The notes beneath the pieces are model-generated. The model was not told where the DNA came from, ran no database searches, and saw only the letters and a list, made by a program, of their open reading frames with translations. A DNA stretch of 64,000 bases from Sinimarinibacterium arenosum. Its GTDB lineage: Bacteria; Pseudomonadota; Gammaproteobacteria; Nevskiales; Nevskiaceae. Of this stretch, positions 1,927 to 42,455 are shown piece by piece; the first letter of the stretch is position 1, and each line of letters opens with the position of its first letter. The stretch covers positions 298,745 to 362,744 of the forward strand of contig NZ_SUKF01000001.1 in NCBI RefSeq assembly GCF_005047655.1. The letters are read 5' to 3'. The position numbers were made by a program, and so were the translations under genes.

Positions 1927-1947
1927 TCCGCGGCAGCGGTTGACTGC

Positions 1948-2325: not shown

Positions 2326-2421
2326 GGGTGCGCCCCTTGTCCCTTTTGGTCCCCAGCCGAGCTGCGTCATTTCCCAAAACGACGACATCGGCTCAGACGC
2401 CATTCAAGCAGGCGCGCATGC

Positions 2422-2452: not shown

Positions 2453-2512
2453 TCGGGCGGGACAGACGGTTGCGCCCCCGTCGTCGTCGCGCACTTCTTC
2501 AATGCATGCTGA

Positions 2513-3304
2513 TCAGGGCATGTAGGCGCCGCCATTGGCGTCCAGCGCGGCACCGGTGACGGCGCTGGCGTAGTCCGAAACCAGGAACAATGCTGCGCGC
2601 GCGCATTCATCGTCCGTCGGAATTCGGCCCAGCGGGATGCCCGAGGCAATCTGCTGCTTGAGCTGCTCCTCGGGCACGCCGAGTTCGCCGGCCTGCCAGG
2701 TGACGTAACCCTGCACCGGGGCGCCCCACATCCAGCCCATGTGGACCGAGTTGACGCGGATGTTGTCGCCACCGACTTCCTTGGCCAGATACTTCACCGA
2801 GTTGGCCAGTGCGGCCTTGGAGGCTGCGTAGCCGGCCTCGCCCAGCGGTGGCACCTGACGTGCGGCCATGGTGTTGATCATCACGATTGCGCCGCCGCCC
2901 TGCTTTTTCATCTGCGGCAGAACGGACTGCGTCAGCTTCAGGGTGCCGAGCAGGTTGGTGCCGAGCACGGCGTTCCAGCTGTCGAGATCGGCGCTGGAGA
3001 CATAGTCCATCGCGCCATGAAAGAACGCACTGTTGACCAGCGCGTCGATGCGGCCGAAACGCTCAGCGGTTTGCCCGGCCAGCGCTTCGCATTGCTGGCG
3101 GTCGGTGATGTCGGTGACGCATTTGAGCACCTGGGTGTTGCCGCCCAGTGCGCGGATGCGGGCTTCGGCCTCGTCCAGCTTCTCGGCGCTGCGCGCGGCG
3201 ACCGCGACCGCCTTGGCGCCTTCGCGCGCGGCTTCAATGGCCAGCTTGATGCCGAGACCCGGTCCGATACCCGAAACGATGACCACTTTGTCCTGCAGCA
3301 GCAT
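2513..3304 (-). CDS. short-chain dehydrogenase/reductase
   Basis: A 263-residue classical SDR. The start at 3304 has the strong site AAGGAG 7 bases upstream. The N-terminal nucleotide-binding motif reads SGIGPGLG and the catalytic pair is YAASK. The usual catalytic serine region reads INTMAARQ, so a threonine seems to replace serine about 14 residues before the tyrosine. Activity through Thr is possible but untested. The family oxidises or reduces hydroxyl/keto groups of small molecules with NAD(P)(H). It is the last gene of an operon with a DUF1214 protein and a sulfotransferase, and lies 28 bases after the sulfotransferase stop. Substrate unknown; a hydrophobic alcohol or ketone is plausible from context. 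Confidence 0.88.
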   Translation of the reverse strand: MLLQDKVVIVSGIGPGLGIKLAIEAAREGAKAVAVAARSAEKLDEAEARIRALGGNTQVLKCVTDITDRQQCEALAGQTAERFGRIDALVNSAFFHGAMDYVSSADLDSWNAVLGTNLLGTLKLTQSVLPQMKKQGGGAIVMINTMAARQVPPLGEAGYAASKAALANSVKYLAKEVGGDNIRVNSVHMGWMWGAPVQGYVTWQAGELGVPEEQLKQQIASGIPLGRIPTDDECARAALFLVSDYASAVTGAALDANGGAYMP

Positions 3305-4505: not shown

Positions 4506-5635
4506 GCGGCGAGTGCCTTGGTCGAGAGGGTTTGTTCGAGATCGTTCAGCTTGATGATCTGGGTGAGTGGGTCGACCTGAACGTCGGCCCCCACCCAGCG
4601 CAGGCACATCGTGCCGCTGTCATGGCCGGCTGTCTGCAGCCAGTTCGGATGTCCCGGGTCGGTATGCGCCAGCACCATCGTGACGCCGCCGTCGGTGTCG
4701 AGGCGGGCGGAGTGCTGGTTCAGGCAGATGCGGTGATACCGGTAATCCAGCGATTCCATCCAGTAGTTGTTGATCTGCAGATTCCAGAAGCGGCATTCCG
4801 GGACCCGCGGCACATGGATGACCAGCGCTTCATCCGGCGCCAGGCGCCAGTGCGAGTGGTAGTAGACGATGTTCGGATCGCCGCCGACCGACTGGCACAG
4901 TGCTTGATCCGACGGTGGCAACGCATTGCTGTGCGGCAGATAGCTCTGTGCCCAGTTGGCGAACAGGCGTGCGGTGCCTTCGACGAAGTCTGCGGTGCGC
5001 GTCAGGCCGGTCATCAGGCGTTCGGTCGACAGGGGCTGTGGCGCAGCGTCGCTACCCAGGCGCGCGATGCTCATTTGCGCCGGACGCTCGGCTTTGCGGT
5101 CAAGAAAGGTCTGGCGCACGATCACTGCGTTGGATTCGGGTTCAAGGCGAACCCAGTTGCGCGGCCGTGGGGTCTGGCTCAGCACGACCTCAAAGTTGCC
5201 GTCGGCATCAAGCTCGAGGTCGCGGGCATCAAGGAAACCAGTCTGTTCCATCTTGCCGTTGGTTTCGTAGCCGCCCTTCTGCGTGCCAAAGCTGAGATAC
5301 GGCACCGTGCCGCGCTGGCCACGGATGATGTACTCGTTGCACCCGTTGAGGCGTCCCATCAGGTACAGATTGTCCGGGTTGTCGGCGCCGATCTTGCCGG
5401 TTTCGTGCGACGGCGCGAAGAAGCCCGGGAAGTCCGGATCGGCAAACTCCAGATGCATTTCCAGACCGATGCGCAGCAGGCGCGTCAGATAGCGATAGCC
5501 TTCGGCCCGATCCAGCGGGGTATCCGGCGCTTCGGCGCGCAGAATCTGCTGTCCGGCCTGTTTCAGGCGATCACAGAATGCTTCCCAGGCCTGGCCGCTG
5601 ACAACGGCGTCGTCGATATCCTTGTTCTGGCTCAT
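4502..5635 (-). CDS. DUF1214 domain protein
   Basis: A 377-residue cytosolic-looking protein without signal peptide. The C-terminal two thirds match the DUF1214 pattern: FWNLQINNYWMESLDYRYH, then a segment with LAHTDPGHPNWLQTAGH near the end. The N-terminal third is helical. It is the first gene of the operon and overlaps the sulfotransferase by four bases. DUF1214 proteins have no settled biochemical function. They often sit beside SDR and sulfotransferase genes, which suggests action on the same metabolite. A palindromic operator candidate lies 40 bases upstream of its start. Confidence 0.85.
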   Translation of the reverse strand: MSQNKDIDDAVVSGQAWEAFCDRLKQAGQQILRAEAPDTPLDRAEGYRYLTRLLRIGLEMHLEFADPDFPGFFAPSHETGKIGADNPDNLYLMGRLNGCNEYIIRGQRGTVPYLSFGTQKGGYETNGKMEQTGFLDARDLELDADGNFEVVLSQTPRPRNWVRLEPESNAVIVRQTFLDRKAERPAQMSIARLGSDAAPQPLSTERLMTGLTRTADFVEGTARLFANWAQSYLPHSNALPPSDQALCQSVGGDPNIVYYHSHWRLAPDEALVIHVPRVPECRFWNLQINNYWMESLDYRYHRICLNQHSARLDTDGGVTMVLAHTDPGHPNWLQTAGHDSGTMCLRWVGADVQVDPLTQIIKLNDLEQTLSTKALAA

Positions 5636-5674
5636 GCCGGTCTCCTCCCGTCTGCGCGGGTGCTGCGCCTTGAG

Positions 5675-5692
5675 TTAAGGTCATGACCTTAA
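5675..5692. promoter_or_regulatory. perfect 18-bp palindrome, probable operator
   Basis: TTAAGGTCATGACCTTAA is its own reverse complement over all 18 bases. It lies 40 bases upstream of the DUF1214 gene start, where a repressor of that operon would bind, and downstream of the stop of the response-regulator gene. TetR-, GntR- and MarR-type dimers use sites of this size. No candidate regulator gene is adjacent. Confidence 0.55.
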
Positions 5693-5744
5693 GCAGGCCG
5701 TGCCGTCACCGCTTCATCTGTTTGCATGAGGGGGTTTTGGTGCC

Positions 5745-6686
5745 CTACATCAGTCGTTTGACGACGCTGCGCAACGAACGGATCCGATCCATCAAGCGGC
5801 CTGTCGTTGAGGCCGGGGCCGGTTCGGGTGCGGCGACGACCTCGTAGCGCTGCAGCAGTTGCGGCGCCTGACTCAGGCGCTGATGCTGACGCAACGCCGA
5901 GGACACCGTGATCTTGCACTGACTTTCGTGCAGCGGTTTGGTGATGAAGCGATAGATCTGTCCCTGATTGATCAAATCAATCGCTGTGCCGGCATCGGCA
6001 CGCTCGGTCAGGATCACCGAGACCAGTTCGGGATGATGCTGTTTCAGCGTGCTGATCAGGCCGATCACCGCCTGGTCCTGTACACGTGTGTCCGACACGA
6101 CGACGCCGATGCGCTCGCGTTCAAGCGTTGATACCGCATCGTCCATGCTGGTGGCGCTGAGCACGCGGATTGCGTCGCCGAGGATGGACTGGATCTGTGC
6201 CGGCACGCGGGGGTCGTCATCGACCACCAGAATGCCTGGCTCCGCGCCGAGCGAAGTCGGTGTGGTGTCGCCGGCGCGTGTGGCGTCGGCACTGGCGCGT
6301 GCCGCCGTCACCGCGCGAGCGACGGTCTGCGTCAGGTCTTCGTTCGACCACGGCTTGTTGACGAAGCGGAAGATCTCGCCTTCGTTGATCGAGCCGATGA
6401 TTGCGTTCAGATCCGAATAGCCGGTCAGCAGGATGCGCATGGCATCCGGATTGAGTTCGCGTGCAGCGCGCAACAGTTCGATGCCAGTCATGCCTGGCAT
6501 GCGCTGATCGCTGACGATGACGTCGACCGGGGTCGAGCGCAGAAAGTCCAGGGCCTTTGCGCCGCTTTCCGAAAAATGCAGCTCGTAGCGGTTGCGGAAC
6601 AGCATGCGCATCGTCGTCAGCACACGCGGCTCATCGTCGACGAACAGAACGCGGGCGCGGGCAGTGGGTTCGGCGGTTTCGTTCAT
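5745..6686 (-). CDS. response regulator with two receiver domains
   Basis: 313 residues. REC domain 1 (about 12-125) has the acidic pair near residue 17, the phospho-acceptor Asp60 in VIVSDQRMPGMTG, and RFVNKPW at the lysine position. REC domain 2 (about 151-270) has VVDDD, Asp199 in VVVSDTRVQD and RFITKP. After that comes a short basic tail with no recognisable output domain. Domain 1 resembles the receiver of RpfG-type regulators. It may act by protein contact or as a phosphate relay or sink. It starts 8 bases after the kinase stop, so the two form an operon. Confidence 0.88.
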   Translation of the reverse strand: MNETAEPTARARVLFVDDEPRVLTTMRMLFRNRYELHFSESGAKALDFLRSTPVDVIVSDQRMPGMTGIELLRAARELNPDAMRILLTGYSDLNAIIGSINEGEIFRFVNKPWSNEDLTQTVARAVTAARASADATRAGDTTPTSLGAEPGILVVDDDPRVPAQIQSILGDAIRVLSATSMDDAVSTLERERIGVVVSDTRVQDQAVIGLISTLKQHHPELVSVILTERADAGTAIDLINQGQIYRFITKPLHESQCKITVSSALRQHQRLSQAPQLLQRYEVVAAPEPAPASTTGRLMDRIRSLRSVVKRLM

Positions 6687-28747: not shown

Positions 28748-31291
28748 TCAGGCGGTCGCAGTGAGTGGGGTGCGGCGTCGCAGGCGATAAAGCCGCGTGC
28801 TCAGCAACGCGAACGCGCTGCTGAGCAGATGGCCGTATCCCAGCGCACCAAAGCGGATGATTTCACCGAGGCTGGCCAGCGGCCGGTCCTGCGGGGTGTC
28901 GGCGCCGGCGTCGAGCCAGGCGTCGGCGCGGGCAAAGGTGCATTCGATCAGGTGACGTTCGTCGTCCAGGCTCAGGCGCTCGAATCGCAGGCCTGCGCGC
29001 GTATCGGTCAGCGAGGTGATGGTGGTCTGGAACACAAATTCGCGGTCGCCGCGCGACAGCGCGATCTTGACCGGTGCCTCGATCGAGGCTGCCAGCGGCG
29101 CATCGAGGGAAATGCCGAGACCCCGCGTCGAGTAGTCACTGGTCGTGCAGACCACGGCGCGGCCGTCATCGAAATACAGCGTTGCCGGAATGCGCAGCGG
29201 TACGCGATGCGCGACGCGCACCTGACGTGATTCCGCAGCGACGCCGAGCGCGGCGCCGAGCATCAGGATGTTGTATGCGGTCCATGCCAAATTCATCAGC
29301 ACTGTACCGATCTCGTGCGTGTTCCAGAACAGCAGGCGACCCACGCCGACGATGAATCCGGCGCTGTTGAGAACGGTCAGCACGATATAAGGGATCGAGA
29401 TCTTCCAGTCGAAATAACCGTGCTCGATCAAACCGCCTTTGGCGGTGATATTGAAGCGGCCAGCCCGTGGATTGATCAGTGCCATCATCGCGGGCACCGC
29501 GATATACCACGCCAGCACCGATTCGTAGGCTTCGGCCCAGAACGAATGACGGTAGTGCCCCTGGATGCGCGAGCCCACCAGTTCCGCCTGAATCAGATGA
29601 GGAAGCACGTAGACCGCAATGGTCGTGGCCCAGGCATTGATGATGTGATATTCGAAGAACAGATAGCCCAGCGGTGCGCTGAGGAACACCAGCCGCGGCA
29701 GTCCGTTGAAGAAGTGAATCATCGAATTCGCATAGCAGATGCGTTGCAGCAACGTCAGTCCACGACCGAACAGCGGATTGTCGATGCGGAACATCTGCGC
29801 CATGCCGCGTGCCCAGCGCATGCGCTGCTTGATGTGGCTGGGCAGGGTTTCGGTGGCCAGACCCGCGGCCTGGGTCAGCCTGACATAGGCACTGGTGTAG
29901 CCGTGCCGGTGCAGCCGTAGGGCCGTGTGCGCGTCCTCGGTCAGGGTCTCGACGGCAAACCCGCCGATATGTTCCAGCGCAGAGCGTTTGAGGACCGCGC
30001 AGGACCCGCAGAAGAACGTCGCATTCCAGAGATCGTTGCCGTCCTGGATCACGCCATAGAACAAGGCGCTTTCGTTGGGGACGCGGCCAAAGGTCCCGAG
30101 GTTGCGCTCGAACGGGTCGGGCGAGAAGAAGTGATGCGGCGTCTGCACCAGCGCGCATTTTGGGTCGCGCAGGAACCAGCCGACGGTGGTCTGCAGGAAG
30201 GAGCGCACCGGGATGTGATCGCAGTCGAATACAGCCACCAGATCACCGCGCGTCATGCTCAGGGCGTGATTCAGATTGCCGGCCTTGGCGTGAAAATTGT
30301 TGCTGCGGATGATGTACTGCGCGCCCACGCTTTCGGCGAAGCGACGCAGTTCCTCGCGGCGACCGTCGTCGAGGATGCAGACGTTGAGCTTGTCCTTGGG
30401 CCAGTCGAGACTGAGTGCCGCCAGTACAGTCGGCTTGATGACGCTGAGCGCTTCGTCGTAGGTGGTGATAAAGACGTCGACACTGGGCCAGGTCTGCGGC
30501 GTCGGCGGTAGCGGTGCGACCGGGCGCTTCAGGGCCCACGCGTCCTGCACGTAGCGCAGAATCAGGACCAGCCAGGTGTAGCACTCCGCCAGCACCAGAC
30601 CGATGCCCATGACCATTTCCGCGCCGGGCTGCAGATCCAGGGTTTCGGTCAGGCGCCACCAGATGTAACGGGATGACGCGACCAGCGAAAAACCGACCAT
30701 GATCAGCGTCGGCACCTTGCCCGGAAGCCGGCGCAACAGCAAGGTCGTGCCCCACATCAGAATCAGGAGTGCGAACTGTGCGCCCGGCGACAGCGGTGTT
30801 GTTGCGCACACCGCCAGTAGCAGCGTGACGCTGATGACCATCAAGTAGCCGATCAGCGGATAACGTTCGGTGGTCAGTCGAGCGAAGGATTCGAGACGGC
30901 GGTCCGCCGGGCCGTAGTCGACACGGTCGAGTCGTGCCGACAGGCGCTGCATCGGCCACCACATCAACTTCAGTACGAACCAGAGCGGCTGCAGGAGTTC
31001 AATCAGTGGTGCGTGCCAGGCTTCGGTGGGAGCATCCGGGCTTGCCGGGCGCAACAGCAGACATGCGGCGATCCAGTCACGAGGACTGTCTGGTTTACGC
31101 ACGCCGAGCTCGCGGATCAGGACTACGCGCAGACGTAGCCAGATCAGCTCCAGCAGCAGAGGTAATGGCCGACGTTGCTCCGCAGGCAGGACGAACAGGC
31201 GCCAGAGCCACTGGGACAGCCGGTGCGGATCGCTCACCCCCAGGCGTTGTGACAGCATGCCGCGCGAAGTCTTGGCGTCGGCTTCAGGCAT
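28748..31291 (-). CDS. bcsA: cellulose synthase catalytic subunit BcsA
   Basis: 847 residues from ATG 31291, overlapping the bcsQ stop by eight bases; a GTG two codons upstream is possible. The GT2 domain has DDG (about 308), DCD (about 356), TED (about 451) and QRMRW (about 489), the UDP-glucose and acceptor-site motifs. Membrane helices flank it on both sides. A C-terminal PilZ domain carries RxxxR (RVAHR, about 692) and DYSTRG (about 719), so synthesis should be activated by c-di-GMP. No diguanylate cyclase or phosphodiesterase gene is in the window. Confidence 0.96.
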   Translation of the reverse strand: MPEADAKTSRGMLSQRLGVSDPHRLSQWLWRLFVLPAEQRRPLPLLLELIWLRLRVVLIRELGVRKPDSPRDWIAACLLLRPASPDAPTEAWHAPLIELLQPLWFVLKLMWWPMQRLSARLDRVDYGPADRRLESFARLTTERYPLIGYLMVISVTLLLAVCATTPLSPGAQFALLILMWGTTLLLRRLPGKVPTLIMVGFSLVASSRYIWWRLTETLDLQPGAEMVMGIGLVLAECYTWLVLILRYVQDAWALKRPVAPLPPTPQTWPSVDVFITTYDEALSVIKPTVLAALSLDWPKDKLNVCILDDGRREELRRFAESVGAQYIIRSNNFHAKAGNLNHALSMTRGDLVAVFDCDHIPVRSFLQTTVGWFLRDPKCALVQTPHHFFSPDPFERNLGTFGRVPNESALFYGVIQDGNDLWNATFFCGSCAVLKRSALEHIGGFAVETLTEDAHTALRLHRHGYTSAYVRLTQAAGLATETLPSHIKQRMRWARGMAQMFRIDNPLFGRGLTLLQRICYANSMIHFFNGLPRLVFLSAPLGYLFFEYHIINAWATTIAVYVLPHLIQAELVGSRIQGHYRHSFWAEAYESVLAWYIAVPAMMALINPRAGRFNITAKGGLIEHGYFDWKISIPYIVLTVLNSAGFIVGVGRLLFWNTHEIGTVLMNLAWTAYNILMLGAALGVAAESRQVRVAHRVPLRIPATLYFDDGRAVVCTTSDYSTRGLGISLDAPLAASIEAPVKIALSRGDREFVFQTTITSLTDTRAGLRFERLSLDDERHLIECTFARADAWLDAGADTPQDRPLASLGEIIRFGALGYGHLLSSAFALLSTRLYRLRRRTPLTATA

Positions 31292-32033
31292 CGACACGCG
31301 CCGGGACGACAGTACTCGTCAGTGCCTGCAACAGACGCTCGGCGAGCATCTCGAGGTCCATTATCGCGCGGCTGCGTGGCGCGTATTCAAAGGGATTCTG
31401 ATTCGCGGCGATGGACTCGCACAGCGCCTCATCGCGGTGAATCGGCGCGAGTAGCTGTGACCCCAACCGCGCTCGCAGCAACGCGTGCAGATCGGATTGC
31501 AGGCGTCGCGTCGGATCCATCTGGTTGATCAAATGCAGCGTGCGATCGGGTGTCGGCAGTGTCGCTGCGAGCCGCGCATAGGACGCCACGTCGGCGCGCC
31601 AGAGCTGCACGCTCAGATCGGCGGCGGCCTGAGCCTGATCGGCATAGACGCTGGGCTGACGCGGCGTGTCGATGAGCACTACGGTGTCGTCCTGCAGCCC
31701 GAGTCGGCGCAGGATGTCGCGCAGGCGTGAAGGATGTTCGCGCAAGATGGCCGGGGCCGATGGAAAAGCCGTATTCCCGACCGAGAGGATGCGGATGCCG
31801 TCGGAATTCTGTATGGCGTTCAGTGCGGTTGCACCTGACGTGTCGACCAGACTGGCGTGCAGGCCGGAGTCGTGTGGCGCCGTTGCGCCCAGGTATGTCG
31901 GCAACAGGTCTGCCGGATCGAGGTCCAGCGCCAGCACCGGCCGTCCACGCCGTGCAAATGCGCTGGCCAGCGCCGCGGTCAAGGTGGTTCGGCCGCTGCC
32001 ACCGAGGCAGGACACCATGGCGATGACTTTCAT
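31284..32033 (-). CDS. bcsQ: BcsQ, ParA/MinD-like cellulose biosynthesis protein
   Basis: 249 residues. The P-loop reads CLGGSGRTTL (9-18): the deviant Walker A lysines are missing or changed to Arg15, in line with other BcsQ proteins that keep GG-x-G-x-T but not the lysines. The BcsQ-type segment IHRDEALCESIAANQNP is present. BcsQ localises and supports the synthase, together with BcsR in enterobacteria. Its start overlaps the bcsF stop and its stop overlaps bcsA, so all are translationally coupled. Confidence 0.9.
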   Translation of the reverse strand: MKVIAMVSCLGGSGRTTLTAALASAFARRGRPVLALDLDPADLLPTYLGATAPHDSGLHASLVDTSGATALNAIQNSDGIRILSVGNTAFPSAPAILREHPSRLRDILRRLGLQDDTVVLIDTPRQPSVYADQAQAAADLSVQLWRADVASYARLAATLPTPDRTLHLINQMDPTRRLQSDLHALLRARLGSQLLAPIHRDEALCESIAANQNPFEYAPRSRAIMDLEMLAERLLQALTSTVVPARVDA

Positions 32034-32272
32034 GGTTCAGGATCCACGACGACTTCGCGCGGACCAGCCGGGCGATCGGTACGGGTCGGGTTGGCCTGCA
32101 ATGACTGCAGCAGCTGCGGATGCCACTGCGCGCCGAAGCCCAGGGCACGTCGTAGTCGGCGCCAGCGCAAACGCAGGGTCACAGGGCGCAGCAGGGCCAG
32201 CGCAATCGTGGTGGCCAGGATGCCAAACAAGGCGCTGAGCAAGAGCAGGGCGAGGGTGATGGCGGCGGTCAT
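32030..32272 (-). CDS. bcsF: BcsF-like small membrane protein
   Basis: 80 residues: one N-terminal membrane helix (about 5-30) and then a basic cytosolic tail (RLRWRRLRRALGFGAQ). In enterobacteria BcsF has this layout and recruits BcsE to the synthase. Its place between bcsE and bcsQ, with four-base overlaps on both sides, supports the name. Sequence similarity alone would be too weak for so short a protein, so the name rests on topology and position. Confidence 0.65.
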   Translation of the reverse strand: MTAAITLALLLLSALFGILATTIALALLRPVTLRLRWRRLRRALGFGAQWHPQLLQSLQANPTRTDRPAGPREVVVDPEP

Positions 32273-33915
32273 GCGGGCATGCCCTCGCTCTGCGCGGGCA
32301 GTAGCGGCATCGATACCGCTGTGATTTTCCGTACTGGCTGGGGCGCTGCAGAATCTCCGGCGGTCGGCTCATCCGCTTCACTCAGATCCAGCGCCATCGC
32401 AACGCTGCTTGCCGATGTGAAGTCCGGAAGGTTCAGATGAGCGCCACGCGCTTCCAGTTCGGCCAATGCGCGGCGGATCGCCGAGGGATCGGTGTGCTGA
32501 ACGTGGCCGACGAACAATTCGGCGATCGGACGTGCAAACAGACGTGCCAGTGTCATCGCGACGTCGTGTTCCCAGCAGCCGTACAGGAATACATACAGGC
32601 TGCGATTGTCGACGGTGAAAACGTCGCCGCCGCGGCGCGTCCGGCATAGGCTGATTGCCTCGTCCATGCGGACATCCGGCAGCAGGAACAAGCGCACCAT
32701 TGCGCATTCGATGCCGCTGGCCTCGGCTTTGTTCAGGCTCTGCTGACACTGCTTGCCAAAGGCGTCGAGTGACAGAAAGCCGAGCGAGGCAGGAGGCTCC
32801 AGCGCGTCCAGCGCGGCTTCGGGGTCGTCGGGCAGGGGCTTCAGGAACAGCTGATCACGCAAGGCTTCGAACACCGTCACCAGCTGGGTCGGCCCATACG
32901 TGGCGCTGACCACGACATTGGCTCCCATGCGTTGCAGGATCAGCTTCTGCACGGTGCGCAGCCGTTGCGTGTGATCACGAATCACGATCTTGACGCCCGA
33001 GCCCACCTGACGACGCAAAGCGCAAACCAGCAGAGCAAGGCTGCGAAAACGTTCCGGCGGGCCTGCTTCCAGAAAGCAGGTGCACGCCACGAGTGCGTCG
33101 GCGCGCTTCAGCAGATCTTCGGGCTCATCGACGACGGTCCAGTCCGACGGCGGGCGTGGATCCTGCAGCGCGGTTTCGCGTGTGATGTAAACCTGATCCC
33201 GGTCCTTGGCCCCTTCCAGCTGCGCGGGTTCAGTGAAGTGCCTTGCCGGCAGTTCCGGTCGCAGCTCAAAAGCGTGATCCGGTGTTTCGCGCAGAAGATA
33301 GTCATGTGCCGATGGCATGCCATGCCACAGCTCCAGGCGCAGGGCCAGATCTCCGCTGTATTCACCCAGATTGGCGACCCCGACGAAACCGGCTCCGGCC
33401 TGGCGCAGCCGTTCGATCCGGCTGTGCGCTTCCAGGTCGTTGAACACCATCACCACGGCGGTGAGGGTTTCCGCCGCCCAGTCGCGCAGCCAGCGCAGCT
33501 GCCGACGCAATCCGGCGTCATCGCTGGACAGCAGATCTTCGGGGTCGGTGAGGATCAGGACACTGCCGGCCGCACCGAAGAAATCGAGTTCATCGATCAA
33601 ACGGATCGTATTGTTGCGCGCGCCATCACGTAGCGGCGGCGGTTGGTGCCCCAGGATGATCAGGCGTTCACGCTCGCTGGCCGTACCGGCGCCGCGGCGT
33701 TCCAGCGCCGACTGCCATGCGCGTGAGCGGGCACCAAGCACGACAGTGACGCGCTGAAGTTGTTCGCGCGCATCGTCGATCAGGCCGCTGATCAGCGGGC
33801 AGGCGAGGTCCGGGGTTTCACACGCCAGCGCATACAGCTGACCGGGATGGATCGCCCCGACGGCCATCGGAAGCCGCCGAATACCGAGTGTCAGACGGGC
33901 TTCGGTCGTGCTCAT
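32269..33915 (-). CDS. bcsE: BcsE, c-di-GMP-binding cellulose biosynthesis protein
   Basis: 548 residues, cytosolic. The N-terminal part is a degenerate receiver/NTPase-like tandem and the C-terminal part the GIL domain. The I-site-like arginine/aspartate motif is RRGGD with Arg428 and Asp431 (RxxD), in the context CRTRRGGDVFTVDNR. BcsE binds c-di-GMP there and boosts cellulose output. It overlaps bcsR by four bases upstream and bcsF by four downstream. The last 40 residues are a Pro/Ala-rich tail of unclear role. Confidence 0.9.
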   Translation of the reverse strand: MSTTEARLTLGIRRLPMAVGAIHPGQLYALACETPDLACPLISGLIDDAREQLQRVTVVLGARSRAWQSALERRGAGTASERERLIILGHQPPPLRDGARNNTIRLIDELDFFGAAGSVLILTDPEDLLSSDDAGLRRQLRWLRDWAAETLTAVVMVFNDLEAHSRIERLRQAGAGFVGVANLGEYSGDLALRLELWHGMPSAHDYLLRETPDHAFELRPELPARHFTEPAQLEGAKDRDQVYITRETALQDPRPPSDWTVVDEPEDLLKRADALVACTCFLEAGPPERFRSLALLVCALRRQVGSGVKIVIRDHTQRLRTVQKLILQRMGANVVVSATYGPTQLVTVFEALRDQLFLKPLPDDPEAALDALEPPASLGFLSLDAFGKQCQQSLNKAEASGIECAMVRLFLLPDVRMDEAISLCRTRRGGDVFTVDNRSLYVFLYGCWEHDVAMTLARLFARPIAELFVGHVQHTDPSAIRRALAELEARGAHLNLPDFTSASSVAMALDLSEADEPTAGDSAAPQPVRKITAVSMPLLPAQSEGMPA

Positions 33916-34577: not shown

Positions 34578-35585
34578 TTGAGCAAGAAGCGAAAGCTGCG
34601 TTCCGCGGCAAAGAAATCCTTCCGCAGTCTGCGTGGCGTGATGCTGGGCGCCGGCTTGGCTGCGTTGACGACGCCGGTGATGTCAGCCGACGGCAATCTG
34701 ACCCGCACCTCGACTGCACGACCATCGGCATCGGTCTCCGGTCATGGGACCTACGCGGCTTTGCGGGCGGCCCTGAATGGGGACATGCAGGCCGCGCTTG
34801 AGCGTTCGCTGCAGGCCTTGCAGCTGGATCGCGCGGCGCGCAACGGCCGGCTTGCCGTTGCTCTGGTCGACATCACTGACCCAGAGCGTCCACGGATGGC
34901 ACAGGTCAATGGCGACAAAATGGTTTATGCGGCAAGTCTGCCGAAGATCGCGATCCTGCTGGGTGCGTTCCAGAAAGCGGCTGAACGCGGTCTGACCCTC
35001 GATACGGCGGCGATCGACGAACTCAAGCAGATGATCCGGAAGTCGTCCAACGCTGCCGCGACGGACATGCTTCAGAAGGTCGGCACACAGTATCTGGCCG
35101 GGGTGCTGCAATCGCCGCGCTACCGGCTGTATGACCCCGCGTTGGGAGGTGGTTTGTGGGTTGGCAAGCCGTACAGCGCCGGTGGTGCGAGCCAGCGCGA
35201 TCCGCTGCATAACATTTCGCATGGCGCCACGGCATATCAGGTGGCGCGCTTCTACTATCTGTTGGAAACCGGGCGTCTGGTCTCGCCGGAAGCCAGCCGG
35301 CAGATGAAGGAAATCATGGGTTCGCCGGAGATTCATCACAAATTCGTCGCCGGTCTCGAGAAGACCCATCCGGATTCGAAGATCTTCCGCAAGTCCGGCT
35401 CGTGGCGCAGCTATCACGCCGACAGCGCGATCGTTGAGCGCGACGGCCGCCGTTACATCGCGGTTGGGTTGGCTGACGATCCGAATGGCGGAGCCTGGAT
35501 GAGCGAGCTGATCGTTGCGATGGACGACATCGTGTTCGGCCGTCCGGTTCGCGTCGCGGCCCGGGCGGCGAATCAGAAAACCTGA
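34578..35585 (+). CDS. exported class A beta-lactamase-fold serine hydrolase
   Basis: 335 residues from a TTG start at 34578, supported by GAGGG 7 bases upstream and by the signal peptide that follows: a very basic n-region (MSKKRKLRSAAKKSFRSLRG), a hydrophobic core, and cleavage near VMSADG. The catalytic motifs are Ser120-x-x-Lys123 (SLPK), SSN at 156-158 and KSG at 272-274. These are the three active-site elements of penicillin-interactive enzymes. Whether it cleaves beta-lactams, peptidoglycan peptides or another ester is unknown. It converges on the Npt gene with one base between stops, and a paralogue lies two genes further. Confidence 0.85.
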   Translation: MSKKRKLRSAAKKSFRSLRGVMLGAGLAALTTPVMSADGNLTRTSTARPSASVSGHGTYAALRAALNGDMQAALERSLQALQLDRAARNGRLAVALVDITDPERPRMAQVNGDKMVYAASLPKIAILLGAFQKAAERGLTLDTAAIDELKQMIRKSSNAAATDMLQKVGTQYLAGVLQSPRYRLYDPALGGGLWVGKPYSAGGASQRDPLHNISHGATAYQVARFYYLLETGRLVSPEASRQMKEIMGSPEIHHKFVAGLEKTHPDSKIFRKSGSWRSYHADSAIVERDGRRYIAVGLADDPNGGAWMSELIVAMDDIVFGRPVRVAARAANQKT

Positions 35586-35586
35586 G

Positions 35587-36900
35587 TCAGGTTGCCGTTG
35601 CCGGGGGCGTCTCGGCAGCGGCAGCGTTCAGGCGCAGATAGTCGTTGCGGATTGCCCACACGGCGTAGATCCAGCCCGCACAGAGTGCGACCACGACCCA
35701 GCTGAGCCCGGCGTCGCTGACCGGCCACGCCAGCCACTGCGTCAGTAGCAGGATCACGACGTTGCCGATGATCTTGAAGCTGCGATAACCGACCATGTCG
35801 ATCCAGGCCTTGGCGCGGAAGATCGTTGCTGCGTCAGTCGGGATGTACAGCAGCTCGCGTGACGCGCGGTTGATCGAGTATGACAGGGCGCGATCGGCGA
35901 TCTTCATCGTGCCGGCAATCCACAGCTGCTGGCGGATGGTGAACAGCATCGCCGCGGCCCCCAGGACCACGGGTTGCACCATCAAGCCGGCAATGGCGCC
36001 GAAGCCGCGGTGCACGATCGGTGTCACGATCAGGTTCACCATCAGTGCCACGGCGTTGAGCACGCTCAGGAACGTCGACAGGAATGCGGTGCGCGCATCG
36101 GCCTCGGTATAACTGCGCTCCACCAGATGCAGGAACTGGTATTCGACGATCGGTTCACACACCTGTGACAACAGCAGGATCAGCGCGATCAGCATCAGAT
36201 AGCGGCTGCCGCGCAGTGTGCGCCAGGCTTCGGCGGCACTGCCGTGGCTGGCGCTCACAGGTTCGGCCTCGGGGTGTGCCTCGGGTTCGCCGCGTTCATA
36301 CAGGCCGAAGCGCGACAGTCCGTTGAGCATCACCATCATCAGTACCAGCAGTGCCGCCGCGACCAGCAGCAGGTCCGGCGTCTGCAATGGCGTCAGCCGG
36401 ATCAGCGCACTGGCGACGGTGCCGCCGGCCAGGCCACCGACCAGGCCGCCACTGGCGATCAGGCCATACCAGCGCTTGCCGTCCGAACTGCGGAACACGC
36501 TGTCGGTGAGGCTCCAGAATTGTTCGACCAGAATCACGCTGAAGACGTCGACCAGCAGATAGAAACCGATCGCGACCGCGGCGCTCGGATGCACCATCAA
36601 CAGCCGGAACACGATCAGCAGCAGGGCGATCACGCCGCAGGTGCCGAGCACCAGATGCAGGCGGCTGTAGCGCCGCACCATGCGCTGGTACATCGGCATC
36701 AGGGCGATCAGCAACGCAGCGCTGCCGGTCCACAGGTACGGCAGTTGCGCGGCGCTGGCGTATTCCAGGAACAGCGAGCGACTGGCCGGCTTGACCTGGT
36801 AATAGGCCAGGATGATCAGGAAGAAGTTCAGGAACAGCAGGCCCGAACGGAGTCCCGGATGACGCAGCAGGCGGTGGGTCGCCATCGGCTTCTCAGTCAT
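35587..36900 (-). CDS. Npt1/Npt2-type nucleotide transporter
   Basis: 437 residues and about 12 membrane helices in an MFS-like layout. The first helices carry LAYYQVKPASRSLFLEY, and later segments RELLYIPTDAATIFRAKAWIDMVGYRSFKIIGN match the conserved core of ATP/ADP-translocase (Npt) proteins. Classical members in Rickettsia and Chlamydia exchange ATP for ADP across the membrane. Free-living proteobacteria carry related proteins of unknown direction and substrate. The start at 36900 overlaps the upstream serine hydrolase stop by four bases. The operon with two exported proteins, one of them ATP-grasp, suggests nucleotide supply to the periplasm; this is inference. Confidence 0.82.
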   Translation of the reverse strand: MTEKPMATHRLLRHPGLRSGLLFLNFFLIILAYYQVKPASRSLFLEYASAAQLPYLWTGSAALLIALMPMYQRMVRRYSRLHLVLGTCGVIALLLIVFRLLMVHPSAAVAIGFYLLVDVFSVILVEQFWSLTDSVFRSSDGKRWYGLIASGGLVGGLAGGTVASALIRLTPLQTPDLLLVAAALLVLMMVMLNGLSRFGLYERGEPEAHPEAEPVSASHGSAAEAWRTLRGSRYLMLIALILLLSQVCEPIVEYQFLHLVERSYTEADARTAFLSTFLSVLNAVALMVNLIVTPIVHRGFGAIAGLMVQPVVLGAAAMLFTIRQQLWIAGTMKIADRALSYSINRASRELLYIPTDAATIFRAKAWIDMVGYRSFKIIGNVVILLLTQWLAWPVSDAGLSWVVVALCAGWIYAVWAIRNDYLRLNAAAAETPPATAT

Positions 36901-38252
36901 TGTTCAGGGCCATTCGAGTTGGCGTCATCGGTGTCGTCGACCGGGACCTGAGGATAAGCTTGCTCGGGCACCTGCGTCTCGACCTCGGATTGCGGGTGCA
37001 GTTTTTCGATCAGACGGTGAATGCGCATAGCCAGCGTCTGATGCGCCACCGCCGAGTTCACGTAGAGCACGTTGGACATCACCGCGACCAGATAGTGAAT
37101 CCGCGGCGCACCCGCCGGCGATTCGACGATCGCGATCGATGCCAGGCGGTTGGTCTTGTCGCCCTTGTACTTGGCGCAGCTGCCCGGCTTCAGGCACTGG
37201 AAGAACGAACCGGATTTGAAGTACACCGCCGCATCGTTGAGCGCCGGATGCGAGGCATAGCGGATGCGGCGCTGGGTCATGTACAGCAGGCGCTTGATCT
37301 CGGCGCTGCTGTAGGGATCGACCAGGGTGCCGGCCTCGAGCCGGAACAGGTACTCGACCAGGGCCTGCGGCGTGCCGTAGCTCGACGTCGTCGGAATGCG
37401 CTGATTGCCCGAGCGGGTGAAGAAGCTGCCCTGACGCAGCTGTTCCGGATCCAGGCCGTTGCGCGTTGTCGCGCTGTCCATCGTCGTGCGCATGATCTCG
37501 CCGAGTTGCGCGCGCGGGGTGTCGGCGAAGAATGCCGCTTCCTGTTCCGTGCCGGGCGGATAGGCGCGGCCGAAATGGCGCAGCGCGATCAGTTCTTTCT
37601 GCACCATGCCTGCGGCGGAATTGGAGCTGGCCGACAGCATCCAGTCGAGGTATTCCCACAGACTGCCCCGATCCCCGATCCGGATCGATCGGCTCTGGCG
37701 CTTGCGTGTCTCCGGATTCCAGAACACGACATGATGGTGGTCGTACTGACTGAAGATATCAGCGGTGATGCGGGTTTCGCGCAGTACCCGTTCACGCGCC
37801 GCGATGTCGTCCGGATACAGGTCGGCCAGTTGCTGGAACAGCGCCAGCGCGACCATGATTTTTCCGACGCTGCCGATGTTGGCGCGTATGTCGGCGTTGT
37901 GCGTGCCATACCGTGGATGGTCCGGATCGCTCAGGTCGAGGACGGCAATGCCGTAGTTCGGGCGAGCATTGGCATCCAGCAGCAAGCCCAGTTTGCGGCT
38001 GAATTCAGGATCTGGCGCGGGCAATCGTGAACCGTCCGATGCGGTCCAGCGCGGCGCGATTGCACGGGATGGAAGGTATTGCCCGGGTTGCAGTCGCCGT
38101 CCTGGAATCTCACCGGATTCGACCTGGGCGGCATAGTCGAGCCGGCGGATGCCCGTGCGCGCGTAATCGTCCAGCGGGTAGGCTTGCAGCAGCGACGGCA
38201 GCGCCGCGCAGAGCAGGACCAGGGCCGGGCGTATCCGCGCCACGTGCGTCAT
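36897..38252 (-). CDS. exported serine hydrolase, beta-lactamase fold
   Basis: 451 residues with a signal peptide (MTHVARIRPALVLLCAALPSLLQAYP). The active-site motifs are Ser128-x-x-Lys131 (SVGK), SSN at 209-211 and KSG at 346-348. A long insertion between the first two (FSQYDHHHVVFWNPETRKR region) and a Pro/Asp-rich tail distinguish it from class A beta-lactamases. It overlaps the gene upstream and the transporter gene downstream by four bases each. It shares the motif set with the hydrolase at 34578, but the two are diverged and not a recent duplication. Confidence 0.85.
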   Translation of the reverse strand: MTHVARIRPALVLLCAALPSLLQAYPLDDYARTGIRRLDYAAQVESGEIPGRRLQPGQYLPSRAIAPRWTASDGSRLPAPDPEFSRKLGLLLDANARPNYGIAVLDLSDPDHPRYGTHNADIRANIGSVGKIMVALALFQQLADLYPDDIAARERVLRETRITADIFSQYDHHHVVFWNPETRKRQSRSIRIGDRGSLWEYLDWMLSASSNSAAGMVQKELIALRHFGRAYPPGTEQEAAFFADTPRAQLGEIMRTTMDSATTRNGLDPEQLRQGSFFTRSGNQRIPTTSSYGTPQALVEYLFRLEAGTLVDPYSSAEIKRLLYMTQRRIRYASHPALNDAAVYFKSGSFFQCLKPGSCAKYKGDKTNRLASIAIVESPAGAPRIHYLVAVMSNVLYVNSAVAHQTLAMRIHRLIEKLHPQSEVETQVPEQAYPQVPVDDTDDANSNGPEQ

Positions 38253-41248
38253 GGCAGTTCGCTCAGCGGGGGCAGCATCATGTTCACGCGTTGGGTCGAC
38301 GCCGCCGACAGTGCGGCGTCGAGCTCGAGCAGCGTCTGACTGCGTGCAGCGGCACGGTTCTGCAGGAACGGTCTGATCTGGAACAGCATCAGCCGGCTGT
38401 CAACGAAGCCGAATTCGACATCGGCTGGCGCCGGCTGACCGCTGCTGTCGATCAGCTGGGGCATCTGTCGCGGCAGTGCGCGTGCCAGTCCGATCAGCTG
38501 TGCGATCTCATTGCTGTGCAGCAGGTATTCCGGCGCATCGGCTCGGGTCATCTTGATACCACCGCCGGCCGGGAGGATGCGCTGGGTGCGCGCGCTGGAT
38601 GAAGACAGCAGATGTACGACGTTGTTGTTGATATTGATGCGCAGCGCTTCAGCGGCCTGGCCGTCGACGCCGCCGCCGACGCCGGGGCTGGTGACCACGG
38701 TCAGCGTGCCGCGGTCGCCCGTGTCGATGTCGGCGGTGACCAGCACGCCCGACTTTTCCGAAGGCACGCTGCGGTGCAGCAGCACCGAGGCGTAGACGTG
38801 TTCGGGGTGATCCATCAGGCTTTGTCGCCAGCTGAACGCTCGCTCGCTGAACGGCGACGCCCAGACCGTGCGGATCGCAGCAACGATGGCGTCGAAGCCG
38901 ACCACATTCGGCACGGTCTTGTTGAGTCCGGCACCAGTGAAGCCCGGCAGATCCTCGACGTTGGTGTCGCTGCGCACGAACACGCCGTAGCTACCGTCTT
39001 CCCCGAACGTGTCCTGCATCGCCGAATGCAGACGCGCCAGGAAGGCCGGATCCAGCGGGGCCTGGGCGATCCAGTGCCGCACGAACGCCAGGAACTCGGC
39101 CAGCTGCTGCGGATACCGCTGCGGCGCGGCGGTCTTCAGCTGGGCCAGCTCGGCGTACTGTGCACGCATCCAGTCGAACATCGACGGTGCCGTCGTGCCG
39201 GTCTTCAGTGGTTGATCCAGCAGCGCGCGAAATTCGCCGAACGGAATCGCCAGGCCGGGGGAAACATGATCCGGAAACGCCTGCGTCAGCTCGCCGACGC
39301 CTGCGGCCTTGGGCCCGACGATGCGGCCCGCATCGGTCGAACGCAGCTGGCGGGTCGGGATCGGCTCCCGGCTTCTGAGATCCAGCTTGTCCAGGTCCAC
39401 GGTGATGGTTGTCGACGGCACTGCAGCGGTCGCGGAGCCGAAGATCGCGTCCCACTGCGGACCGTCGCGTTCGATATGCACTACGCCGGCATGGCTGGCG
39501 GCGACGACGATCCCGTGGCCACGTGCGCGCTGCAGTTCTTCCAGCACCGCCGGACCGACCACGACATTGGGAATTCCGAGATTGCGCGCCAGCAGCTGCA
39601 CGTGCGACAGCGCATTGCCTTCGTTGGCCGTGAGGATGCCGGCGACGGCCGGCAGGTCGGCGGTGGTTTCCGGCACCAGCACGATGGCGTGGGACGGATC
39701 GGCGTTCGGCTGGCGCAGGTCCTCCGGGGTCATCAGCACGCCACGGGCCAGACCCGGATTGAGACGGCGCAGATCGCCGCCGACGCTGCGCCCGAACAAC
39801 AGGCGTTCGGTGCCGCCGAGTTGATCGGCGTCGCGCGCCAGCAACTCGACCACCGACGAATAGAACAGCATCACACTACCGCGCAGGCGGTCAGGCACGA
39901 ACATCGACGCCAGCGGTTCGATCGGTTCGAAACGTTCGATTGCGTCGCCGAAGTGGTAGTCGAGCCGTCGCGCTGCCCACGCCGGCGCGCGTTCGAGTAT
40001 CTGCAGCTGGCGCCGATAGTCGCCGACACTAGCCTCGCTGCGGGCGAGTGCCTCCAGGGCCTGCGATAGTTCGCCGAGTTCGCGAAAGCTCAGCAGGCCC
40101 ATGCCGTACATGGCCTGCGATGCGCTGTCGAGCCAGTCAAGCAGGTGGGCGCGACTTGCGCGCGGCACCGCATCGAGCAGCTGGCGGCTGTCGCTGAAGG
40201 CGTTGACGCCGGCCTGCAGGCTGGCATCCAGCGCGATCAGGCGCACGCTGGGCAGGCCGAGTTCGAGCAGGTGACTGCGGATTAGGGCCAATGCATCGGC
40301 GGCGATGCGCAGCTGCTGTTCATGCCCGGGTTCGGCGTCGAGCGCAGTACCCATTGCACGCAGCTGCCGCGCCAGATCCGGTGGACGGGTGCGAGCCGCC
40401 AGCGAGCGCAGTGCGGTCGAAAGGGGCTTGCGGGTGTAGGCCGTGGTGATCGTCTGCGCCAGCTGCTGGTATTCGGCTTGCAGCTCGGGTCGCGACTGAG
40501 CGCTGTGGGCGTAGTCGAGCACGCGCTGGGCGTCATCGACGTCCGGCGCCAGGTGGATCTTCGAGCGCAGGCCGTCGAAGCGCGGGTCGCGAGCGGCGAT
40601 CGACGTCGCTAGCCCGCGCATTTCGGTCAGCACCGCGCTGTCGGCGCCGTGCGGCAGCAGGCGCGCGGTTTCACGCAGCATCAGGAATTGCTGGCGCCAG
40701 TGCGGATCGCCGAGCAGCGCCAGCAGGATCGCGCTGGCACTGTCGCGTTCGTTGTATTCCTGGAACGCGCCACGATAGAAGCGCGCCTGTCGCAGGATCC
40801 AGCCGTCATCGAAGGCGATCAGGAACTTTTCCAGCAGGATCGTGCTGAGCCGTTCCGGCGGCGCGTCGGGGCCAGTGAAGTCCGTGGGCTTGAGATCGGC
40901 CAGTACGTTGGCGATGGGGTAGCCGGCCGCCCGCAGCTGCTGGGTGCGCTCGGTCCACTCGCCGTGCTGTACGCCGCCACCGTGATCAGCGCAGTTGTAG
41001 GCACTGGGTTCAAGCACGGCGCCATCGGCACAGAACCAGCGCAGGCGCGAGAACGGACCGCGCGGCGCCGATTTCATTTCGACGATCCAGCTGCGCGCAG
41101 TTGCAGCCGACACCTTCGGCAGGGGTTCAGAAACGGGTGCAGGCGTCGTCGCCTGGGCCGCTGCAGTCGATGCCGCCGTCAGGCCGATCCAGGCCAGGGC
41201 CAGCGTGCATAGCGGGTTCGGTGGGTTGCGGAGCCAGCGTGTGTTCAC
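38249..41248 (-). CDS. exported PEP/pyruvate-binding (phosphohistidine plus ATP-grasp) protein
   Basis: 999 residues from a GTG start. A Sec signal peptide is clear (hydrophobic core, cleavage near TAAAQA at about 31). Residues 60-500 are helical and unassigned. The swivel domain follows, with the phospho-accepting histidine at His549 in NEGNALSHVQLLARNLGIP. After it comes a PPDK_N-type ATP-grasp domain (about 640-965) with VRSDTNVEDLPG (758-769) and QIRPF (957-961). No PEP-binding barrel is present. Swivel before ATP-grasp is the order of plant glucan water dikinases, the reverse of pyruvate phosphate dikinase. Export of an ATP-dependent enzyme is odd. It is first gene of the operon. Confidence 0.85.
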   Translation of the reverse strand: MNTRWLRNPPNPLCTLALAWIGLTAASTAAAQATTPAPVSEPLPKVSAATARSWIVEMKSAPRGPFSRLRWFCADGAVLEPSAYNCADHGGGVQHGEWTERTQQLRAAGYPIANVLADLKPTDFTGPDAPPERLSTILLEKFLIAFDDGWILRQARFYRGAFQEYNERDSASAILLALLGDPHWRQQFLMLRETARLLPHGADSAVLTEMRGLATSIAARDPRFDGLRSKIHLAPDVDDAQRVLDYAHSAQSRPELQAEYQQLAQTITTAYTRKPLSTALRSLAARTRPPDLARQLRAMGTALDAEPGHEQQLRIAADALALIRSHLLELGLPSVRLIALDASLQAGVNAFSDSRQLLDAVPRASRAHLLDWLDSASQAMYGMGLLSFRELGELSQALEALARSEASVGDYRRQLQILERAPAWAARRLDYHFGDAIERFEPIEPLASMFVPDRLRGSVMLFYSSVVELLARDADQLGGTERLLFGRSVGGDLRRLNPGLARGVLMTPEDLRQPNADPSHAIVLVPETTADLPAVAGILTANEGNALSHVQLLARNLGIPNVVVGPAVLEELQRARGHGIVVAASHAGVVHIERDGPQWDAIFGSATAAVPSTTITVDLDKLDLRSREPIPTRQLRSTDAGRIVGPKAAGVGELTQAFPDHVSPGLAIPFGEFRALLDQPLKTGTTAPSMFDWMRAQYAELAQLKTAAPQRYPQQLAEFLAFVRHWIAQAPLDPAFLARLHSAMQDTFGEDGSYGVFVRSDTNVEDLPGFTGAGLNKTVPNVVGFDAIVAAIRTVWASPFSERAFSWRQSLMDHPEHVYASVLLHRSVPSEKSGVLVTADIDTGDRGTLTVVTSPGVGGGVDGQAAEALRININNNVVHLLSSSSARTQRILPAGGGIKMTRADAPEYLLHSNEIAQLIGLARALPRQMPQLIDSSGQPAPADVEFGFVDSRLMLFQIRPFLQNRAAARSQTLLELDAALSAASTQRVNMMLPPLSELP

Positions 41249-41375: not shown

Positions 41376-42455
<1,080 letters not shown>

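What the first reader, a model, noticed from the sequence alone, without database searches (positions are those of the whole stretch)
34578..41248. Four-gene block linking an Npt nucleotide transporter to a secreted ATP-grasp/phosphohistidine protein and two secreted serine hydrolases
Sequence shows three minus-strand genes coupled by four-base overlaps: an exported swivel plus ATP-grasp protein, an exported SxxK/SSN/KSG hydrolase, and an Npt-type transporter. They converge, with one base between stops, on a second exported hydrolase. ATP-grasp enzymes need ATP, which the periplasm lacks; Npt proteins move ATP/ADP across membranes. Inference: the transporter supplies nucleotide to the envelope so the dikinase-like protein can phosphorylate an envelope or extracellular substrate, perhaps a glucan given the adjacent cellulose locus. 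I know of no described system of this kind.
Basis: partly seen in the sequence, partly recalled or inferred. Interest (0 to 1): 0.78.

Follow-up and report, generated by a model that had tools for sequence, protein, structure and literature searches.

The report
Periplasmic dikinase module with nucleotide carrier
A four-gene set shared by scattered Gram-negative bacteria pairs an ATP-using phosphate-transfer enzyme that carries an export signal with a transporter of the ATP/ADP-carrier family, which suggests that these bacteria supply energy-rich nucleotides to a compartment normally thought to have none.

Summary
It is a conserved module. In the window's order, full-length dikinase and NTT gene occur in the same 9 of 85 genomes, adjacent in all nine. 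In a class sample of 370 genomes, 34 of 36 dikinase genomes have an NTT gene, against 30 of 334 others. Of 80 loci, 48 have enough flank; 39 of these hold all four genes, and no other family is in more than 7 of the 80. On the dikinase tree the transporter type changes at least 8 times, each time within the NTT family. Four tested catalytic residues are kept in 52 of 52 dikinases. The 451-aa hydrolase has a class A/PBP-A fold. Best reading: the NTT protein supplies ATP to the periplasm, the dikinase phosphorylates an envelope acceptor, and the PBP-A-like enzymes prepare or trim it. The cellulose link fails: the window's bcs genes match nothing in the other loci. Direction, nucleotide and acceptor are untested, and one of four charged NTT residues is lost.

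The parts
34578..35585 (+). Exported PBP/class A-like serine hydrolase H335 (S120-L-P-K123, S156-S-N158, K272-S-G274)
   Evidence: PF13354 61.6 bits; S120, K123, S156, N158, K272, S273, G274 in 51 of 51 rows
35587..36900 (-). NTT/TLC-family nucleotide transporter NPT437 (type NPT1); 4-base overlap with the next gene
   Evidence: PF03219 63.7 bits; ADP,ATP carriers 9j3n, 9j3j; tree; charged residues
36897..38252 (-). Exported PBP-A/class A-fold serine hydrolase H451 (S128xxK131, S209-S-N211, K346-S-G348; invariant C353, C359); 4-base overlap with the next gene
   Evidence: PF13354 26.5 bits; 41 rows; S210 nearly invariant, the other named residues invariant; model pLDDT 90.8; PBP-A Z 24.8, 2.8 A, 258 aligned
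38249..41248 (-). Exported dikinase DIK999: unknown N-domain, phosphohistidine swivel, C-terminal ATP-grasp
   Evidence: (model pLDDT 90.3)
41156..41248 (-). Predicted signal peptide of DIK999 (residues 1 to about 31)
   Evidence: hydropathy with controls; helix 12-28, then low-confidence 29-41; cleavage site is my estimate
39809..41107 (-). DIK999 residues 48-480: conserved, mostly helical N-domain with invariant C73 and C86; no Pfam match; possible acceptor-binding part
   Evidence: the whole-model fold search barely tests it
39449..39781 (-). DIK999 residues 490-600 (my limits; Pfam 524-571): swivel domain; catalytic His549 = window 39602-39604
   Evidence: aligned with the swivel His of PEPS/RPH; RPH His825
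38354..39376 (-). DIK999 residues 625-965: ATP-grasp; K647, R759, T778 align with RPH Lys22, Arg117, Thr136
   Evidence: (RPH 5hv1 Z 32.9, 2.0 A, 308 aligned)

Best explanation
The block is a self-contained envelope phosphotransfer module. An NTT-family carrier in the inner membrane moves nucleotide, most likely ATP out in exchange for spent nucleotide. A dikinase exported to the periplasm grips ATP in its C-terminal ATP-grasp domain, moves a phosphate to His549 of the swivel domain (releasing AMP and Pi, as rifampin phosphotransferase does), swings it to the conserved N-terminal domain, and passes it to an envelope or extracellular acceptor. The two exported serine enzymes have the active-site motifs and, for H451, the fold of PBP-A, a peptidoglycan DD-peptidase; they probably make, expose or trim the acceptor, so a peptidoglycan-derived acceptor is my first guess. 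Shown: gene linkage, export-type N-termini, complete catalytic residues, NTT family of the carrier. Inferred: periplasmic ATP, direction of transport, reaction, acceptor.
For: Order: full-length dikinase and TLC in the same 9 of 85 genomes, next to each other in all nine; within genus g1, 2 of 11 genomes have both and the other 9 neither. Class: 34 of 36 against 30 of 334, Fisher 5.8e-28, uncorrected for kinship; the 36 carry 24 family codes. Loci: 39 of 48 with enough flank hold all four genes; the six without a nearby NTT all have a TLC match elsewhere in the genome. No family lying outside the four genes is in more than 7 of 80 loci. Transporter type changes at least 8 times on the dikinase tree, within the NTT family. 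K647, R759, T778, H549 invariant in 52 of 52. Signal-like N-terminus in 52 of 52, against 165 of 401 neighbour frames and 0 of 8 PEP-synthase-like paralogues; from residue 59 on, 40 of 52 have exactly two Cys, the invariant C73 and C86, as for a disulphide. H451 fold nearest PBP-A, tied with class A enzymes. NPT1 keeps D118/E253/K376, matching E245/E385/K527 of plant NTT1; K527 is probably the ATP-binding lysine.
Against: The periplasm is held to lack ATP (PMC5740924, passage), and the characterised NTTs are importers or organelle carriers (PMC5381601). K155, apparently needed for ADP binding in plant NTT1, is Trp in 36 of 36 NPT1 proteins; NPT2 and NTT-HEAT carriers lack the K527 equivalent (14 of 15 and 3 of 3 have Asp), so they may carry something else. 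Two of 36 class genomes with the dikinase have no TLC match at E 0.001 (G373 a sub-threshold one at E 0.003), and G373 has a general MFS protein near the module. In 10 of the 34 class genomes with both, the places I compared are not within 12 kb (9 on another contig, 1 at 30 kb). H335 was not found in the fetched neighbourhoods of 3 of 9 order-level genomes (L038 ends at its contig edge). In 198 genomes around a Desulfobacterium genome only the centre has the dikinase, so it is rare there. No acceptor-specific partner gene recurs.
Confidence: 0.58

Rival explanations
1. The carrier is NTT-like in fold but moves a different substrate, such as the phosphorylated product or a muropeptide, into the cytosol (an uptake and recycling pathway with periplasmic activation by phosphorylation). 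The dikinase would then get its nucleotide some other way.
For: K155 equivalent lost in NPT1; K527 equivalent lost in NPT2 and NTT-HEAT types; MFS_1 also scores weakly on NPT437 (25.1 bits, below cut-off 33.4); G373 has a general MFS near the module; hydrolases of peptidoglycan-enzyme type.
Against: All swaps found stay inside the NTT family, though only loci with an NTT hit were labelled; NPT1 keeps D118, E253 and K376; an ATP-grasp protein in the periplasm still needs a nucleotide source.
Confidence: 0.17
2. The module runs the other way: the periplasmic dikinase makes ATP from AMP and an external phospho-compound, and the NTT protein imports it (energy or nucleotide scavenging).
For: Pyruvate phosphate dikinase is reversible (recalled), and NTTs of intracellular bacteria import ATP (PMC5381601, parts 1-3 of 4 read).
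Against: The 36 class genomes with the dikinase are 2.3 to 5.7 Mb, not reduced, and named members include Hydrocarboniphaga and Guyparkeria (free-living, recalled); no PEP/pyruvate-binding domain in the protein; the role of the hydrolases is then unclear.
Confidence: 0.12
3. A detoxification cassette: the dikinase inactivates an antibiotic as rifampin phosphotransferase does, and the class A-like proteins act on beta-lactams.
For: Best structural match of the ATP-grasp domain is rifampin phosphotransferase (Z 32.9); class A fold of H451, with beta-lactamases within Z 1 of PBP-A; two nearly invariant acidic residues, E306 and D312, lie between SxN and KSG, so a deacylating base is not excluded.
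Against: RPH domain order and equivalog score are not met; neither acidic residue is invariant in 41 rows; no match to the dikinase at E 1e-30 in the plasmid collection; PADLOC gives nothing at E 0.01.
Confidence: 0.08
4. The linkage is incidental: inherited gene order without shared function.
For: Trees show some vertical inheritance within families.
Against: Loci from several phyla keep these four genes while other neighbours change; gene order and strand vary while membership stays; dikinase and TLC are present or absent together within one genus.
Confidence: 0.03

Closest known systems
Rifampin phosphotransferase (RPH) and phosphoenolpyruvate synthase
   Same: ATP-grasp plus swivel His; RPH Lys22, Arg117, Thr136, His825 all have counterparts in the dikinase
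   Different: Those enzymes have no export signal that I know of (recalled; 0 of 8 PEP-synthase-like paralogues pass the hydropathy test) and start with the ATP-grasp domain; here the order is N-domain, swivel, ATP-grasp, and no PEP/pyruvate domain was found
Plant alpha-glucan, water dikinase (GWD/PWD)
   Same: Domain order substrate part, phosphohistidine domain, C-terminal ATP-binding domain (recalled)
   Different: GWD1_pHisD scores 12.8 bits against a cut-off of 27; no carbohydrate-binding domain among the Pfam matches
NTT/TLC nucleotide transporters (plastid NTT1, chlamydial and rickettsial Tlc, free-living NTTs of Major et al. 2017, PMC5381601)
   Same: PF03219; E385 and K527 equivalents kept, E245 as Asp; NTT-HEAT and cNBD relatives described there also occur beside some modules
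   Different: Far below NCBIfam TIGR00769 (47.6 against 387.2 bits); K155 equivalent is Trp; the linkage with a dikinase is not mentioned in the parts of that paper I read (1-3 of 4)
PBP-A of Thermosynechococcus (DD-peptidase of class A beta-lactamase fold, PMC11189452, passages)
   Same: H451 fold (Z 24.8, 2.8 A, 258 aligned, 15% identity), SxxK/SxN/K[ST]G motifs
   Different: Longer protein with an invariant Cys pair and N-terminal extension; class A beta-lactamases tie within Z 1; whether the omega-loop Glu is absent as in PBP-A was not settled; activity unknown
Luminal kinases of the eukaryotic secretory pathway fed by ER/Golgi ATP carriers (recalled)
   Same: ATP-using enzyme outside the cytosol with a carrier that brings ATP
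   Different: Unrelated proteins, eukaryotic compartment

Membership tests
Swivel/ATP-grasp dikinases (PPDK_N superfamily) | PPDK_N and PEP-utilizers domains above cut-off | tested here: met
   99.5 (27) and 27.7 (23.1) bits
Swivel/ATP-grasp dikinases (PPDK_N superfamily) | Catalytic residues equivalent to RPH Lys22, Arg117, Thr136, His825 | tested here: met
   K647, R759, T778, H549 invariant in 52 rows, aligned; RPH residues from PMC4844700 passages
Swivel/ATP-grasp dikinases (PPDK_N superfamily) | ATP-dependent phosphotransfer | not testable with these tools
   needs biochemistry
PEP synthase / pyruvate phosphate dikinase | PEP/pyruvate-binding C-terminal domain and equivalog score | tested here: not met
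   no such domain among the Pfam matches up to E 1; all NCBIfam PEPS/PPDK models far below cut-off
Rifampin phosphotransferase | NF041857 equivalog score; ATP-grasp first, swivel last | tested here: not met
   81.3 against 999 bits; swivel precedes ATP-grasp
Alpha-glucan water dikinase | GWD phosphohistidine domain PF22973 above cut-off | tested here: not met
   12.8 against 27 bits
NTT/TLC transporters | PF03219 above cut-off | tested here: met
   63.7 against 21 bits; ADP,ATP carrier 9j3n E 4.9e-17 with profile A3
NTT/TLC transporters | Four charged residues important in plant NTT1 (K155, E245, E385, K527) | tested here: inconclusive
   D118 36/36, E or D at 253 36/36, K or R at 376 36/36; W57 at the K155 column 36/36, in a weakly anchored part
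NTT/TLC transporters | Nucleotide transport | not testable with these tools
   needs uptake or liposome assay
Class A serine beta-lactamase (H451) | SxxK, SxN, K[ST]G | tested here: met
Class A serine beta-lactamase (H451) | Catalytic omega-loop Glu166 | tested here: inconclusive
   no invariant Glu/Asp between SxN and KSG in 41 rows, but E306 and D312 are nearly invariant; not superposed residue by residue
PBP-A-type DD-peptidase (H451) | Same fold and motifs | tested here: met
   2j7v_A Z 24.8, 2.8 A, 258 aligned; class A enzymes tie within Z 1
PBP-A-type DD-peptidase (H335) | Same fold; no omega-loop Glu | tested here: inconclusive
   PF13354 and motifs only; no structure predicted; conserved D186 of unknown role

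The most novel reading that the evidence does not exclude
Some Gram-negative bacteria keep a dedicated periplasmic ATP supply: an NTT carrier delivers ATP across the inner membrane to an exported dikinase that phosphorylates a cell-envelope molecule prepared by PBP-A-like enzymes. This would be an ATP-driven modification system outside the cytosol with its own fuel line.
Probability: 0.5. Interest if true: 0.92.

Novelty: categorically new. Interest (0 to 1): 0.8.

Why it matters
It would give free-living NTT transporters, of which few have been characterised (PMC5381601), a concrete partner and task, and would challenge the working rule that the periplasm has no ATP. It makes the question testable with one operon: purify two or three proteins and ask whether ATP crosses and where the phosphate goes.

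Tried and rejected
Cellulose/glucan link: BcsA, BcsE, BcsQ and three genes of the other flank had no blastp match at E 1e-5 in the 80 loci; in the eight other order-level neighbourhoods the only hit of those six queries is a weak SDR match in L041. Extra partner genes: among clusters of all frames in 80 loci, those found in more than 7 loci lie over the four genes themselves (other frames or antisense; checked, which leaves stray members in at most 7 loci); the largest clusters outside are in 7 of 80. Plasmid carriage: no match at E 1e-30. Defence library: none at E 0.01. A second phylum as a replicate: in 198 genomes around G452 only the centre itself has the dikinase; I did not run TLC on that set. 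The H335 profile A4 found no solved structure at E 0.01. I first took H451 to have no conserved acidic residue between its motifs; on recheck E306 and D312 are nearly invariant, so the point is left open. Literature: ten searches ran, of which 21, 34, 42, 67, 78, 79 and 85 bear on this system; none listed a described system of this kind. Most subscription journals are not in that library. Read: PMC5381601 parts 1-3 of 4; passages of PMC3306366, PMC4256464, PMC4844700, PMC11189452, PMC5740924; all others as search listings only.

Rows dropped before counts: 80 of 268 relatives were kept by the tool; the dikinase alignment A5 has the window, 49 of the 80 loci and two order-level rows, the H451 alignment A6 the window, 38 loci and two; cut or overlong frames and some near relatives were left out. 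The transporter tree uses complete frames only; the dikinase tree uses the window and the 56 of 80 loci with an NTT hit over 60 bits. The surveys overlap: L042, L043, L045, L046, L050 have the contig lengths of G045, G007, G008, G055, G009, and L059, L090 those of G259, G378; L072 and L075 come from one MAG.


Full report
WHAT IS THERE. The four ORFs stand as described. On the minus strand, 38249-41248 (999 aa), 36897-38252 (451 aa) and 35587-36900 (437 aa) overlap by four bases at each junction. On the plus strand, 34578-35585 (335 aa) meets the last of them with one base between stops. Pfam gives PEP-utilizers plus PPDK_N, Beta-lactamase2, TLC, and Beta-lactamase2. I call them DIK, H451, NPT and H335.

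IT IS A CONSERVED MODULE. In the window's order (85 genomes, own included) full-length DIK orthologues (E below 1e-190) are in 9 genomes; the other matches are partial, at E 2.5e-18 to 9e-11. TLC is in exactly the same nine. In genus g1 both are in 2 of 11 genomes and neither in the other nine. All nine neighbourhoods keep DIK, H451, NPT in that order on one strand; H335 lies convergent in 6 of 9, window included. DIK and H451 overlap by four bases in 6 of the 8 other genomes. In a sample of 370 genomes of the class, DIK (E at most 1e-60) is in 36 and TLC (E at most 0.001) in 64; 34 have both (expected about 6; Fisher 5.8e-28, not corrected for kinship). Of the 34, by the places I compared, 24 have them on one contig within 12 kb, one at 30 kb and nine on different contigs. 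The two without are G288 and G373.

WIDER SURVEY. A scan of GTDB genomes with the nine-row alignment found 268 relatives, of which the best 80 were kept; what follows concerns these 80, which include five genomes of the order-level set. Where titles and labels name a phylum it is Pseudomonadota, Thermodesulfobacteriota, Myxococcota or Nitrospirota, all Gram-negative. With profiles of the four order-level families and a 60-bit floor, 48 loci have at least 5 kb after and 3 kb before DIK: H451 is in 46, an NTT protein in 42, H335 in 41, all four in 39. The six with no NTT nearby (L059, L080, L085, L105, L116, L119) all have a TLC match elsewhere in the genome. Order and strand vary while membership stays. 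No family lying outside the four genes is in more than 7 of 80 loci. The window's Bcs proteins have no counterpart there. In 198 genomes around a Desulfobacterium genome, only that genome has DIK: the spread is patchy.

THE CARRIER SLOT. A tree of 74 transporters puts the window's type (NPT1, 36 rows, support 100/99) apart from a second clade (NPT2, 14 rows, 100/100), a NTT-HEAT group (3 rows) and one single case (L056) that joins another NTT. On the DIK tree (56 loci with an NTT nearby plus the window; quick method) the carrier type changes at least 8 times; starred branches alone force 4 changes for NPT1 and 7 for NPT2. The slot is refilled each time by an NTT-family protein. I take this as the strongest sign that nucleotide transport is what the module needs. 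Limits: the rows were chosen for having an NTT; the label of L081 rests on a cut frame; and G373 has a general MFS protein near its module.

THE CARRIER'S RESIDUES. Four charged residues matter in plant NTT1: K155, E245, E385, K527 (PMC4256464 passage); K155 is probably in the ADP site and K527 in the ATP site (PMC3306366 passages). In NPT1 the equivalents are W57 (36/36), D118 (36/36), E253 (33 E, 3 D) and K376 (35 K, 1 R). The K155 column is weakly anchored, though seven outgroup NTTs have Lys there. NPT2 (L056 counted in) and NTT-HEAT types have Asp at the K527 column (14 of 15 and 3 of 3), so their substrate may differ.

THE DIKINASE. Its model (pLDDT 90.3) has a helical N-domain (48-480), a swivel domain and a C-terminal ATP-grasp domain that matches rifampin phosphotransferase (5hv1, Z 32.9, 2.0 A, 308 aligned) and PEP synthase (2ols, Z 30.9, 2.2 A, 300 aligned). 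The RPH residues Lys22, Arg117, Thr136 and His825 (PMC4844700 passages) align with K647, R759, T778 and H549, all invariant in 52 rows. All 52 rows have a hydrophobic N-terminal stretch. This test is crude: 165 of 401 neighbour frames pass it too, but 0 of 8 PEP-synthase-like paralogues do, and with a slightly different cut 51 of 52 dikinases pass. From residue 59 on, 40 of 52 rows have exactly two Cys; C73 and C86 are invariant, as for a periplasmic disulphide. No pyruvate-binding domain was found, and every NCBIfam model listed is far below its cut-off, so I do not file it as PEP synthase, PPDK or RPH.

THE HYDROLASES. H451's model (pLDDT 90.8) has the class A fold; PBP-A ranks first (Z 24.8, 2.8 A, 258 aligned), with beta-lactamases within Z 1. 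PBP-A is a DD-peptidase that lacks the omega-loop Glu of beta-lactamases (PMC11189452 passages). H451 has SxxK, SxN and KSG. Between SxN and KSG no Glu or Asp is invariant in 41 rows, but E306 and D312 are nearly so; without a superposition I leave open whether one is a deacylating base. H335 has the same motifs in 51 of 51 rows (position 157 varies); its fold was not predicted.

MECHANISM. Shown: linkage, export-type N-termini, a complete dikinase active site, an NTT-family carrier, PBP-A-like hydrolases. Inferred: ATP crosses the inner membrane through the carrier; the dikinase forms phospho-His549, giving AMP and Pi; the phosphate goes to an acceptor held by the N-domain; the hydrolases prepare or trim that acceptor. 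Peptidoglycan is my first guess because of PBP-A, with low confidence (about 0.3). The main rival is a carrier of another substrate.

NOVELTY. The parts belong to known superfamilies, but I found no description of an exported dikinase with a nucleotide carrier (searches, in an open-access library). I rate the system categorically new, with the mechanism still a hypothesis.

Noticed in passing
L074:15182-17500, L121:15228-17417, L090:16960-19107, L066:6795-9956: Long NTT proteins (715-772 aa; HEAT matches below cut-off in L074 and L121) stand beside some modules, with or without an NPT1 gene, and L066 has a 1053-aa protein with a cyclic-nucleotide-binding domain.
   Followed up: partly
L122:4713-8948 (+), 4734-5819 (-), 1623-2546 (-): Genome G238 has a second, divergent dikinase (498 bits against the DIK profile) with its own divergent Beta-lactamase2 neighbour and a TIR-domain gene nearby: perhaps a second subfamily of the module.
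   Followed up: partly
L128:13838-15331: In G373, one of two class genomes with the dikinase but no TLC match at E 0.001, a general MFS_1 transporter (169 bits) lies near the module; no blastp match to it at E 1e-5 in the 80 loci.
   Followed up: partly
window 28748-33915: BcsQ and BcsE genes (Pfam) and a probable BcsA run away from H335 on the other strand, with a 662-base gap; a separate cellulose locus.
   Followed up: partly
L043:5378-7327, L069:15687-17135 and five other loci: A gene that reads like pyruvate kinase (my reading of the letters, no Pfam call) lies in the flanks of 7 of 80 loci.
   Followed up: no
window about 41800-41870: The saccharopine-dehydrogenase-like gene 41376-42455 contains a DGDGDGDGDG run, the trace of a short six-base repeat (seen in the translations).
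   Followed up: no
G259:C6, G347:C381, G141:C13, G091:C52, G425:C71, G316:C92: Dikinase matches reported with one in-frame stop (TAA, TAG or TGA) inside the matched stretch; perhaps upstream of the true start or at a contig edge, not checked.
   Followed up: no
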